From positions 1,674,001-1,738,000 of the forward strand of contig NZ_BAABRS010000001.1 of the NCBI RefSeq assembly GCF_039545095.1: a stretch of 64,000 nt of DNA. Reading direction: 5' to 3'. The position numbers were made by a program, and so were the translations under genes. Each line of letters begins with the position of its first letter. Positions within the stretch are counted from its first letter, which is position 1. The notes under the pieces were generated by a model. The model worked only from the letters and a program-made list of their open reading frames with translations, did no database searches and was not told the origin of the DNA. The stretch is from Fodinibius salicampi (GTDB taxonomy: Bacteria > Bacteroidota > Rhodothermia > Balneolales > Balneolaceae). Positions 32,370 through 36,639 of this stretch are shown in pieces.

Positions 32370-32455
32370 AGTATTGGGGGGAGGAGGCGTCAGCCAGCCG
32401 GCGGATAAAAGTCCGTTGAGCTACTAGCTATACCACTCCGCGATATGAGTCCGAA
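32370..32455 (-). pseudogene. Degenerate copy of the initiator tRNA gene
   Basis: Aligned with the intact tRNA at 36451-36536, in the same orientation. The acceptor/D-arm half plus 12 bases of 5' flank match at 30 of 36 positions (32419-32454 against 36501-36536), and the 3' end matches at 13 of 16. The middle is eroded: the T-arm is destroyed, two bases are lost, and the anticodon loop reads CTTTTAT instead of CTCATAA. It cannot fold as a working tRNA. It marks the left boundary of a 4-kb segment whose right boundary is the intact gene. Confidence 0.8.
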
Positions 32456-32492
32456 AGTTATAGGGTTTAACTCATTCTACTGCTCTTAAAAC

Positions 32493-33665
32493 TTAAAAAC
32501 CGGCACTTAACTGAATAGCAAAAACATCATCTTTTAACTCCATACCCTTGTTCTTGGAAAGCAAATAGGAAACCTTTAAAAGTATGTTCCTATTTAGCTT
32601 ATATCCAGCAACAACCTCAAATCGGTCTTTGTCAGGAGTAGGTTTACCTGTGATATTTAGAGAATCAAGTGTTAGTTCTTTGGGAATATATCGTTCATAG
32701 CGAATGGCCCCATATCCGCCTACCCAAAAAGGAAAACGCATTTTAAATTTTGCAAGGTAATGTGCTACATCATTGTCAAGGTGTTCTTGAACAAGTTGAC
32801 CATCCGGATCTATCCAGGGAGAATCCCAGCGATTAAAAGTATACTGGAACAATAACTGATAATAACTATAGGAAAACTCGGTATGGGCTGAGACAATCGT
32901 CTGTCGATACCCGGCTCTCTCCTTATCCGATAATACATCATTTATAGGATCGTCCAGCAAATAAGCTCCCCTCCCAAATGAAATACCGATTTTACTCCAT
33001 ATAACAGGGCGCAACTCCATCCGGCCTATAAATGCGGGAAGGTTTTGTTCCCCGACATCGGTATAACTGGAAACTCCGGTCAATGTAGCGGCAAGTTCAT
33101 ACTGAAACCTTTCATTTTCCGTTGCCCCGGTAAGTTTTACCCCCTGCGAATACATCCGCCTGTACACTAATGATTGTCCAGGTACCCCATCATACGAGCT
33201 TTCCCCAAAAAAGTAACCACGCTGCTGATTCACCGGCATATTCCATACATGGGACAGCGGCAAATGCACAAAAGGATTATTTGAAGAAAGCAACAGTTCA
33301 TCAGTTCTGCCAAAAGGCGTGGTAAAACGACCGGCCGTAATCTTAAAATTCTCAGCGGCCAACCAATTGATATTAAAAGAAGAAAAAAAGATCTCACTTC
33401 TACTTCCTGTATAATAATCTGATTGCAGCGCACCCGAAACAAACCAATTATCAGAAATTGGTGCATTCACAAAAAGTCGGATAGAAGGCGTATAAATCAG
33501 CCATTTATCATTGGGGGTCTGATTCACCGTGGGATCTGAATCCGTCCCGCCCTTTCGCAATTCAAAATCTGCTAATCCGCCAATATCTATCTGCCCAAAT
33601 GCTGTACCTGCCAACATCAACCAAATGCTAATGAACAAACAGAAACCTTTTCTATTTATCTCCAT
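32493..33665 (-). CDS. Porin-like outer-membrane beta-barrel protein
   Basis: 390 residues from Met at 33665 (a start four codons earlier would overlap the kinase stop). A signal peptide (MEINRKGFCLFISIWLMLAG, cleaved near TAFGQ) is followed by alternating, aromatic-rich strands (YTPSIRLFVNAPISDNWFVSG, FFSSFNINWLAAENFKITAG, RFTTPFGRTDELLLSSNNPF) and a C-terminal phenylalanine (AIQLSAGF), typical of outer-membrane barrels. The GRFTTPFGR segment resembles phosphate-selective/OprP-like or similar porins. It is the last gene of the cupredoxin-kinase operon. The substrate is unknown. Confidence 0.75.
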   Translation of the reverse strand: MEINRKGFCLFISIWLMLAGTAFGQIDIGGLADFELRKGGTDSDPTVNQTPNDKWLIYTPSIRLFVNAPISDNWFVSGALQSDYYTGSRSEIFFSSFNINWLAAENFKITAGRFTTPFGRTDELLLSSNNPFVHLPLSHVWNMPVNQQRGYFFGESSYDGVPGQSLVYRRMYSQGVKLTGATENERFQYELAATLTGVSSYTDVGEQNLPAFIGRMELRPVIWSKIGISFGRGAYLLDDPINDVLSDKERAGYRQTIVSAHTEFSYSYYQLLFQYTFNRWDSPWIDPDGQLVQEHLDNDVAHYLAKFKMRFPFWVGGYGAIRYERYIPKELTLDSLNITGKPTPDKDRFEVVAGYKLNRNILLKVSYLLSKNKGMELKDDVFAIQLSAGF

Positions 33666-33676
33666 ATGACATCGCA

Positions 33677-35464
33677 TTAATTCAAATTCAATGAACTGCT
33701 TGATCCTTTTTTATCTTTTTTCTCAAAAATAACGGTGATCTTTGTTCCACGCTCAGATTCTATCTTTATTTTCGCGTCTATCTGTGTAGATAGTATTTTG
33801 ATAAGAGAAAAACCCAATGACTCACTTTCTTCCAAAGAAAAATCATCATCCAACCCCTTCCCCTCATCTTCTACCTTGAGAACTACGCTACCTTCTTCTT
33901 CATAAAATGAAATGGCCACCGTTCCTGATCCCCCATCAGGATAGGCATGCTTAAAAGCATTGGTTACCAGCTCATTAACCATGAGCCCAAAAGGAACAGC
34001 TTGATTCACATTTAGATCAATATCTTCCGCATCAATATCTACACTCAGGTCCGAATAAGCTGATTTATATATATCATGAATGGAGTTGACCATCTTTTTG
34101 ATAAAATCATTGAAAGCAAGGTTATTAAAATTCTGTGCTTTATAAAGCATTTCGTGTACCGTGGCCATCGACTGGATACGCAATTGACTATTCTTAATAA
34201 TCCGCTCCGTTTGTTCATCCTCAACGTTATTACCTTCCAATTGCAATAATCCAGAAATAACCGCCAGATTATTCTTAACCCGGTGATGAATTTCCGCCAA
34301 CAGGGTCTCTTTTTCCCTTATACTTTCCTTGATATTGGTTACCAGCTTATTAAAAGTTCGCGTCAATTGCCCAAACTCATCCCGGCTTTCAACAGAAACA
34401 GGATGATCATAATCCTCATTTTCAATCCTTTTAATACCATCGAGCAACCGATTAATCGGACGCGTCAAATTTTTTGTTAGAGTGATGCCAAGAACAATCG
34501 CTATTAATATTCCTCCAAAACCAATTAGATAAATAACGCGTTGCAATTGATGAAGGGGTTCCAGAGCCTGTGTCAATGATTTTGCAACAGCATAATAACC
34601 TGAAATTTCTACAGACTGAGGATCATATTGTACCATTGGCAATAAATATGCGAGCCATTGCTGATTCTTCATTTCCATTTCGATGGTCGTGCTGCCCTGC
34701 CGGTTAATTTCGTCTACAGAAGCTTGCTCAATGCCTTTAGAAAGAATTGTCCGATCTTTTTCCAACAAGGAATCAATAGAAGTAGTTAAGAGCTTTTCAT
34801 CCACATAATACGATACCTCGTATCCGATCACTTGAGCAAGTAGTTCTGCTTCGCGATTACGAATAGGATACCCAAGTGAAAGTGCTGCAATAACCTGATT
34901 CTGCAAAAAGACCGGTATAGTAATCACATTAAAATAATTCTCTCCTTGTTTCCAGATATATGATTGTTGCGGATACTGTCCTTTCAAAGCTTTTTGTACC
35001 CCAGATTTACTACTCATAGATGTTTTGTTAGGATCGATATTGGATAATTGACCAAGAAGAACTCCATCTTTGTCAAAAACCATTACTAATCCCACAGAAT
35101 CCAGGCTAGTCGTTAGCGGTTCCGAAGCCAGAGTATCAGAAATCAGGGGATCAAAATGCAAGAGGTGAACTAATTCCTGGCGAATTTGCTGGTTTATGGT
35201 GTTTGGATCTCCTGTTGAAATCGCAGCCTTCATATAGGGCATATCAGCCACGAGTGTAGCTGTCTGCCGAAGCTGTCGAAATCGAACATCCTGCAATTGC
35301 TCAAAAATCTTTCCAGCCTCATGAAAACTTGAGTTTATATCTTCGCGAATCCGGTTATCTAAGATTTGGCTAACTGCAAAAAGCACCACGACCAACACCA
35401 GCAGAGCAAGGCCTACGAATCCGGATAGTAACTTCCATCGAATAGGAAATTTAGGAGATTCCAT
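33677..35464 (-). CDS. Sensor histidine kinase, HisKA_2 family, with periplasmic sensor and HAMP
   Basis: 595 residues, inner membrane. TM1 is about 11-34, a Cache-like periplasmic sensor spans about 35-308 (VGLVMVFDKDGVLLGQL, FNVITIPVFLQNQVIAALSLGYP), TM2 is about 310-330 and HAMP about 330-383. The HisKA_2 phosphoacceptor helix has EIHHRVKNNLAVISGLLQLE (His393/394), and the HATPase_c domain has N498 in MVNELVTNAFKHA, the G1 box VEDEGKGL and the G2-like ESLGFSLIK. No response regulator is encoded next to it. It starts 2 nt after the cupredoxin-like gene and overlaps or abuts the porin-like gene, so it may sense copper, redox or oxidative conditions. That last part is inference. Confidence 0.9.
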   Translation of the reverse strand: MESPKFPIRWKLLSGFVGLALLVLVVVLFAVSQILDNRIREDINSSFHEAGKIFEQLQDVRFRQLRQTATLVADMPYMKAAISTGDPNTINQQIRQELVHLLHFDPLISDTLASEPLTTSLDSVGLVMVFDKDGVLLGQLSNIDPNKTSMSSKSGVQKALKGQYPQQSYIWKQGENYFNVITIPVFLQNQVIAALSLGYPIRNREAELLAQVIGYEVSYYVDEKLLTTSIDSLLEKDRTILSKGIEQASVDEINRQGSTTIEMEMKNQQWLAYLLPMVQYDPQSVEISGYYAVAKSLTQALEPLHQLQRVIYLIGFGGILIAIVLGITLTKNLTRPINRLLDGIKRIENEDYDHPVSVESRDEFGQLTRTFNKLVTNIKESIREKETLLAEIHHRVKNNLAVISGLLQLEGNNVEDEQTERIIKNSQLRIQSMATVHEMLYKAQNFNNLAFNDFIKKMVNSIHDIYKSAYSDLSVDIDAEDIDLNVNQAVPFGLMVNELVTNAFKHAYPDGGSGTVAISFYEEEGSVVLKVEDEGKGLDDDFSLEESESLGFSLIKILSTQIDAKIKIESERGTKITVIFEKKDKKGSSSSLNLN

Positions 35465-35466
35465 TA

Positions 35467-36201: not shown

Positions 36202-36255
36202 AATTTTAATATAATGCCAAAAAGATCTGCCCCGATTTTGTACCAACGAAACCAA

Positions 36256-36410
36256 TTATCCAACGAGTATTTTATACTGTAGTAGTATATAAAAACACAT
36301 TGGAGAAAGCACAATCTTTTTTACTAACGGATCTCGAATTGAGAAAACTTATATTGCTATAAGCGTAACTTTAACATGTTGCGTTCAAATACGAAAAGAA
36401 ATGCCAAAAT
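36256..36410. promoter_or_regulatory. Promoter region of the cupredoxin operon
   Basis: AT-rich spacer between the fMet tRNA terminator and the cupredoxin gene. It includes a near-palindrome TTTTATACT...AGTATATAAAA at 36270-36294 that could be an operator. No gene is seen. Confidence 0.35.
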
Positions 36411-36447
36411 AAAAAAACGGCTTCCTGATCCTCAGAAAGCCGTCCCT
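36408..36447 (-). terminator. Intrinsic terminator of the initiator tRNA gene
   Basis: A stem ACGGCTT...AAGCCGT (36417-36423 with 36437-36443, extended inside by TCCTGA/TCAGAA-type pairs) is followed on the minus strand by a T-rich run at 36408-36416. It begins a few bases past the tRNA 3' end. Confidence 0.85.
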
Positions 36448-36452
36448 GGTAG

Positions 36453-36525
36453 TGGCGGGGGGAGGATTCGAACCTCCGACCTTCGGGTTATGAGCCCGAC
36501 GAGCTACCAGCTGCTCCACCCCGCG
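36453..36525 (-). tRNA. Initiator tRNA-fMet (CAT)
   Basis: 73 nt without encoded CCA. The acceptor stem is CGCGGGG with CCCCGCC, leaving base 1 unpaired (C1-C72), the hallmark of initiator tRNA. The D-stem is GAGC/GCTC, the anticodon stem has three consecutive G-C pairs (TCGGG/CCCGA), the anticodon is CAT at 36490-36492, and the T-arm is GGAGG-TTCGAAT-CCTCC. A terminator follows. It is the only intact tRNA in the window, and a degenerate copy lies 4 kb downstream. Confidence 0.96.
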
Positions 36526-36639
36526 ATGTGAGTCCGTAATAATAAGGCTTGACATGGGTATTTGTCAATAGTAAATTCAAAATTCTTTCCCCCATGATTT
36601 TATGCATGAAAAATTGAATTAAATCCTATCAGGAGACTT

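What the first reader, a model, noticed from the sequence alone, without database searches (positions are those of the whole stretch)
32370..36536. Degenerate second initiator tRNA bounding a 4-kb operon
A decayed tRNA-fMet copy, matching 30 of 36 bases through the 5' half and 5' flank, lies in the same orientation as the intact gene. Everything between them is one three-gene operon. This could be the scar of an insertion at the initiator tRNA, an unusual target, or a tandem tRNA duplication later split by the operon. The full-length copy with 5' flank argues for duplication more than classical 3'-end integration.
Basis: partly seen in the sequence, partly recalled or inferred. Interest (0 to 1): 0.6.

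Follow-up and report, generated by a model that had tools for sequence, protein, structure and literature searches.

The report
Hairpin-scarred second initiator tRNA gene
Near this bacterium's initiator tRNA gene lies a dead copy with a hairpin in place of part of its anticodon arm, a mark also seen beside tRNA genes of related bacteria, often together with a small DNA-cutting enzyme gene that seems loyal to one kind of tRNA.

Summary
The second fMet copy is real and longer than reported: 32362-32471 (-) aligns from the -10 element through the tRNA into the terminator start (score 231; 2000 shuffles at most 117). It is not simply decayed. Part of its anticodon arm is replaced by a TCCGCC-N4-GGCGGA palindrome found at the same place in fMet copies of other Balneolales. 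There, 7 of 8 loci read intact fMet, terminator, ~85-aa GIY-YIG ORF, hairpin copy of the fMet 3' half. Other GIY-YIG clades sit behind tRNA-Gly, Leu, Val, Asn and Ser; tRNA type follows the GIY-YIG tree (7 changes; 300 shuffles at least 16). In the genus, GIY-YIG relics follow fMet in G006, G007 and G010. The operon's kinase is full-length in 2 of 12 genus genomes. rocD-fMet spacing varies from 0.1 to 9.7 kb, fMet-lat from 113 to 124 bases. Best reading: the scar of a tRNA-specific, SegB-like GIY-YIG element, with the operon lodged in a recombination-prone interval. No GIY-YIG ORF or relic was found around the scar, so the nuclease link here is inferred; the palindrome also occurs away from tRNA genes.

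The parts
32362..32471 (-). scarred second fMet copy: -10 element, leader, 5' half, palindromic core, 3' end, start of terminator
32388..32415 (-). core that replaces the anticodon 3' strand and variable loop; 25 of 28 bases equal a consensus of fMet hairpin copies
32493..33677 (-). porin-like outer-membrane protein gene, first gene next to the scar
   Evidence: no Pfam match, so the name is my reading of the sequence
33677..35464 (-). HisKA_2/HAMP/dCache_3 histidine kinase gene
35467..36255 (-). cupredoxin-like protein gene (start codon uncertain)
36413..36447 (-). terminator of the intact fMet gene
36452..36525 (-). intact initiator tRNA gene, anticodon CAT
36539..36568 (-). fMet promoter TTGACA-18-TATTAT
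36640..37968 (+). lat-like class III aminotransferase, constant neighbour on the promoter side of fMet in the genus

Best explanation
The second copy is the scar of a tRNA-gene-specific GIY-YIG element. Shown: in Balneolales, small GIY-YIG ORFs sit just downstream of particular tRNA genes, fMet among them; many are accompanied by a copy of the tRNA's 3' half in which an arm is replaced or interrupted by a palindrome; some units stand in tandem; ORF-less copies with 5' half and the same palindrome also occur; and the window copy carries this palindrome at the same place. Inferred: the nuclease breaks the tRNA gene, recombinational repair duplicates tRNA segments (as reported for SegB of phage T6), the palindrome marks the displaced non-functional copy, and the break-prone interval downstream of fMet has taken up other genes, here the three-gene operon. 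In this genome the nuclease ORF is gone from the locus and the scar is drifting.
For: Core test: a chimera of own fMet with the L054-type core scores 298 against the copy, fMet alone 231, 1000 shuffled cores at most 254. Same core after fMet in 8 further loci, 7 with a GIY-YIG ORF between, two of them (L041, L045) in tandem units. Of 114 GIY-YIG hits in 106 fetched loci, 36 have a tRNA within 500 bp upstream on the same strand, 4 downstream, 0 on the other strand. 22 of 33 such tRNA genes have a copy of their 3' half within 1 kb, two of these being a neighbouring true tRNA-Leu. tRNA type changes 7 times on the GIY-YIG tree, 300 shuffles at least 16. At 49 fMet loci ORF and copy go together: 6 both, 5 ORF only, 2 copy only, 36 neither, Fisher p = 0.0007. 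Genus relics after fMet in G006, G007, G010. G010 has a kinase gene between two GIY-YIG relics at this locus. Full-length ORF-less fMet copy with core in L244.
Against: No GIY-YIG relic in the window: alignments at shuffle level, profile search of 28001-37500 empty; the window therefore counts as 'neither' within 1 kb. The palindrome is not confined to tRNA copies: it also lies in non-tRNA places (L200, L207, L208, L222, L227) and inside RNase P RNA (L216), so it may be an independent dispersed repeat. 78 of 114 GIY-YIG hits have no tRNA within 500 bp upstream, and 11 of 33 tRNA-linked ones have no copy. Copies without ORF exist (L073, L109; G064, G188). The window copy has leader and 5' half and lies downstream of the intact gene, whereas the full-length copies of L244, L242, L247 and L190 lie upstream. 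Nuclease activity is untested.
Confidence: 0.55

Rival explanations
1. A palindromic repeat of its own, unrelated to the GIY-YIG gene, invades tRNA genes and other RNA genes; GIY-YIG genes merely share the tRNA neighbourhood. The window copy is a duplicated fMet gene hit by that repeat.
For: The palindrome occurs outside tRNA genes and in RNase P RNA; ORF-less hairpin copies exist; other palindromes interrupt D- and T-arms.
Against: Copies and GIY-YIG ORFs go together at fMet (p = 0.0007, related genomes not independent); the core always replaces the same ten or so bases in fMet, Asn and Met copies.
Confidence: 0.25
2. Plain tandem duplication of fMet followed by neutral decay; the operon was later inserted between the copies and the core resemblance is chance.
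For: Whole gene with flanks duplicated, leader like that of the own gene.
Against: Core test: 298 against at most 254 for 1000 shuffled cores; 25 of 28 bases.
Confidence: 0.1
3. Scar of an integrated island that used fMet as attachment site.
For: A tRNA gene and a partial repeat bound foreign-looking genes; the interval varies in size among relatives.
Against: The repeat includes promoter and 5' half; no integrase among the interval genes; the operon is next to fMet's downstream side in G009 without any repeat.
Confidence: 0.05
4. The copy now serves as a 3' untranslated or regulatory element of the operon.
For: It begins about 20 bases after the porin stop codon.
Against: Folding is no better than shuffles (z -0.72); nothing like it follows the same porin gene in G009.
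Confidence: 0.04

Closest known systems
SegB, free-standing GIY-YIG homing endonuclease of T-even phages (PMC13096335: abstract, 12 passages and section 10 seen)
   Same: GIY-YIG gene beside tRNA genes; tandem units of tRNA segment plus nuclease gene, with the joint between tRNA and the 3' end of the nuclease gene.
   Different: Here bacterial chromosome, ~85 aa single-domain protein, one tRNA type per clade, and a palindrome in the displaced tRNA copy; no activity shown. PHROGs gives only a weak endonuclease match for one of three proteins.
UPF0213/YhbQ-type small GIY-YIG proteins (PDB 1ywl, 1zg2)
   Same: Closest solved structures by sequence, E 9.5e-8 and 1e-6; similar size.
   Different: Nothing about tRNA linkage comes with those entries.
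Palindromic repeats inside RNA genes, such as Rickettsia palindromic elements (recalled; search listing only)
   Same: Short hairpins inserted in RNA genes.
   Different: Here always in an extra copy next to the intact gene, and mostly at one position in fMet copies.
tRNA-borne genomic islands
   Same: tRNA gene and a partial copy bound variable genes.
   Different: Copy includes promoter, 5' half and hairpin; no integrase among the interval genes.

Membership tests
tRNA-linked GIY-YIG/hairpin-copy element (class described here) | second tRNA copy with palindrome replacing the anticodon 3' strand | tested here: met
tRNA-linked GIY-YIG/hairpin-copy element (class described here) | GIY-YIG ORF or relic beside the tRNA gene | tested here: not met
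   window; present in other genus members G006, G007, G010
SegB-like free-standing homing endonuclease | GIY-YIG catalytic domain | tested here: met
   in relatives only, 3 of 3 proteins scanned; not in the window locus
SegB-like free-standing homing endonuclease | cuts tRNA-gene DNA and drives segmental amplification | not testable with these tools
   tandem units seen in L041 and L045 are only compatible with it
tRNA-borne genomic island | integrase gene in the interval | tested here: not met
   three interval proteins in Pfam
tRNA-borne genomic island | direct repeat limited to the tRNA 3' end | tested here: not met
   repeat spans promoter to terminator
functional tRNA gene | recognised cloverleaf | tested here: not met

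The most novel reading that the evidence does not exclude
Bacterial chromosomes carry families of minimal (~85 aa) GIY-YIG selfish genes, each loyal to one tRNA gene, that live between the intact tRNA and a duplicated 3' half switched off by a hairpin cassette; they leave the essential tRNA intact, drive local tandem duplication, and make the downstream side of the tRNA a gateway for new genes, as at this initiator tRNA.
Probability: 0.4. Interest if true: 0.8.

Novelty: new variant of a known kind. Interest (0 to 1): 0.6.

Why it matters
It would be a chromosomal counterpart of SegB: a nuclease gene that lives off essential tRNA genes, here the initiator tRNA, without destroying them, and a possible reason why genes accumulate on one side of such a gene. 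The loyalty of each GIY-YIG clade to one tRNA gives a direct test: which DNA does each protein cut, and does the hairpin copy resist? It also shows that a tRNA copy that looks merely decayed can be a specific scar.

Tried and rejected
Simple decay: against the chimera test. Island with attachment sites. A GIY-YIG relic just downstream of the intact fMet (a stretch beginning ATGTTAAAGTTACGC looked promising): scores 148-202 against nine references with shuffle maxima 192-225; beside the scar 105-156 against 180-209; profile search empty; dropped. Upstream region of GWxTD: only for G007 does the alignment look convincing near the start codon, by eye and without a control; not used for the scar. 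GIY-YIG hits without a tRNA: Rfam on 20 such loci gave two tRNAs and no other RNA. Species trees: lat leans to G000 with G007/G001/G011 (90/92) and not with G009, purL leaves it open, so one gain with losses, two gains or transfer of the operon stay open.

Limits of the counts. One search reads overlapping loci: 26 places, 19 of them in fMet copies with the same genomes counted more than once; 107 loci were given, 106 had a hit; at least one hit (G010:C1:1549027) was not among them, L328 was left out as a repeat of L185, and pieces of one interrupted ORF (L166) count twice; of the 22 copies L172 and L173 are a true neighbouring tRNA-Leu; of the 18 hairpins those two and L281 are ordinary anticodon stems; in L177, L257, L260 and L280 the copy starts before, not after, the ORF's end; loci with under 700 bases downstream were dropped; L045 counts as without copy because the threshold missed it, though it has the core. 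Searches dropped ORFs under 55 residues or with more than 8 stops. (core pattern, 32 of 394 genomes) also had hits of its reversed control in 6 genomes; (stricter) had none, but its hits in G027 and G291 are not in a recognised tRNA copy.
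Full report
Setting. The window lies in a genome close to Fodinibius: the best named lat relatives are Fodinibius and Aliifodinibius at 81-84% identity. The intact fMet gene is at 36452-36525 on the minus strand, with a promoter and a terminator; lat is divergent, 114 bases away.

Observation. One local alignment covers 32362-32471, from the -10 element through the tRNA into the terminator start: score 231, next best place in the window 132, at most 117 in 2000 shuffles. A sequence model of 14 intact fMet genes gives 32.1 bits, E = 4.7e-8 in 632 kb. tRNA finders do not accept it. 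The leader CGGACTCA is shared with this genome's own gene and those of G004 and G010, not with G009 and the other genus rows, so the copy looks like a local product.

What the middle is. The alignment with fMet breaks in the anticodon 3' strand and variable loop. There the copy reads CGGACTTTTATCCGCCGGCTGGCTGACG. The model also found a second partial fMet in L123 with CTCTTATCCGCCGAGTGGCGGACG. A scan of 2.07 Mb of fetched, partly overlapping sequence for TCCGCC-N4-GGCGGA with at most one mismatch gave 26 places, 19 of them in fMet copies: L039, L041, L045 (and L130, same genome), L047, L054, L073, L107, L123 and the window. A chimera of own fMet with the L054-type core fits the window copy at 298 against 231 for fMet alone; 1000 shuffled cores reach 254 at most.

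The anatomy in relatives. In 7 of these 8 other loci the order is: intact fMet, terminator, an ORF of about 85 aa (PF01541 GIY-YIG in 3 of 3 scanned), then a copy of the fMet 3' half from the D-stem on, often sharing the ORF's stop codon, with the palindrome in the anticodon 3' strand; L073 has the copy without ORF; L041 and L045 carry tandem units. A search of 58 relatives with the ORF profile matched 31. In the surroundings fetched, 36 of 114 ORF hits have a tRNA within 500 bp upstream on the same strand, 4 downstream, 0 on the opposite strand; types Gly-GCC 14, Met 7, Ser-GCT 6, Leu-GAG 3, Asn 3, Val 2, Ser-TGA 1. 22 of 33 such tRNA genes have a copy of their 3' half within 1 kb, 18 with a hairpin of 6 bp or more, with the exceptions listed under Tried and rejected. 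Palindromes differ: TCCGCC type in fMet, Asn and Met copies, TCCCGA type in Gly, Asn and Val copies, a T-arm insert in Leu. tRNA type changes 7 times for 7 types on the GIY-YIG tree; 300 label shuffles give 16 or more. At 49 fMet loci ORF and copy go together: 6 both, 5 ORF only, 2 copy only, 36 neither, the window among the last because its copy is 4 kb away; p = 0.0007, without correction for relatedness. ORF-less copies with 5' half stand upstream of the intact gene for fMet (L244), Asn (L190, L242, L247) and Met (L218, elongator by my reading). Over 394 phylum genomes the core followed by GGTTC, up to two mismatches, hit 14 genomes at 26 places, reversed control 0; at least two of those places are not in a recognised tRNA copy.

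Against tRNA specificity. The same palindrome lies in non-tRNA places (L200, L207, L208, L222, L227) and inside an RNase P RNA gene (L216). 78 of 114 ORF hits have no tRNA within 500 bp upstream. The palindrome may thus be a dispersed repeat of its own.

The genus and the operon. On the promoter side fMet and lat are 113-124 bases apart. On the other side rocD follows after 0.1-5.7 kb in nine genomes and 9.7 kb in G009. The operon's kinase is full-length only here and in G009 among 12 genus genomes; five more genomes match its kinase domain only; porin and cupredoxin were sought only in fetched loci. In G009 the order is rocD, operon, further genes, fMet, and no second fMet. In the window genome rocD and neighbours lie on contig C6, and a GWxTD gene, opposite in orientation and 49% identical to G009's, borders the scar, so a rearrangement joint lies at or near it. 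GIY-YIG relics stand just after fMet in G007, G010 and G006; in G010 a second relic lies beyond a PAS-kinase gene, so there too a gene sits between array remnants. G004's fMet contig ends just after fMet and its contig C39 begins inside a core followed by the fMet 3' half, a terminator and a GIY-YIG start; the join is inferred.

Mechanism. In phage T6 the GIY-YIG enzyme SegB cuts in tRNA genes and its activity is needed for tandem amplification of the tRNA-segB segment; [quoted passage not shown]). The anatomy here is alike. I infer nuclease breaks at the tRNA gene, repair by duplication, a hairpin in the extra copy, and a recombination-prone interval downstream. What the hairpin does, protection from cutting or silencing, is open. 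The window copy has leader and 5' half; it may be a duplicated whole gene converted to the core form, or a collapsed tRNA-ORF-copy unit in a cell that had a second fMet. I cannot tell which, nor whether the operon came before or after.

Known or not. Ten text searches of the held PMC library (GIY-YIG with tRNA gene and Bacteroidetes, initiator tRNA, palindromic and insertion, downstream of tRNA, tRNA gene fragment, tandem and Bacteroidota; nuclease superfamily; palindromic element and pseudo-tRNA; Rickettsia palindromic element; Fodinibius) listed no paper that by title or abstract describes this arrangement in bacterial chromosomes. Several lists were cut (25 of 188, 20 of 95, 8 of 161, 6 of 62), and subscription papers and preprints are not held. 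In PMC1564403 I saw three passages only.

Verdict. The window feature is a worn scar, but it points to a family-wide association that can be tested.

Noticed in passing
L216 (G021:C4) 1506-1521: The palindrome TCCGCCGGCTGGCGGA lies inside an RNase P RNA gene (Rfam RF00010 match 1288-1701).
   Followed up: partly
window 36545-36570: The fMet promoter region TTGACA-N8-TGTCAA is an inverted repeat kept in all 12 genus rows of the alignment, spacer included; perhaps an operator.
   Followed up: no
window 36452-36525: By my reading the initiator tRNA has C1 opposite C72, and CTA instead of an encoded CCA after A73.
   Followed up: no
L269 (G000:C6:94528-96761): The window's own genome has a GIY-YIG gene 86 bp after tRNA-Ser(GCT), without a detectable tRNA copy.
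   Followed up: partly
L218 1350-1600, L220 1250-2250: tRNA copies carry further palindromes in D- and T-loop positions (seen by eye).
   Followed up: no
G000:C6:53902-60841 (L152): rocD and neighbours, beside fMet in other genus members, lie on another contig here.
   Followed up: partly
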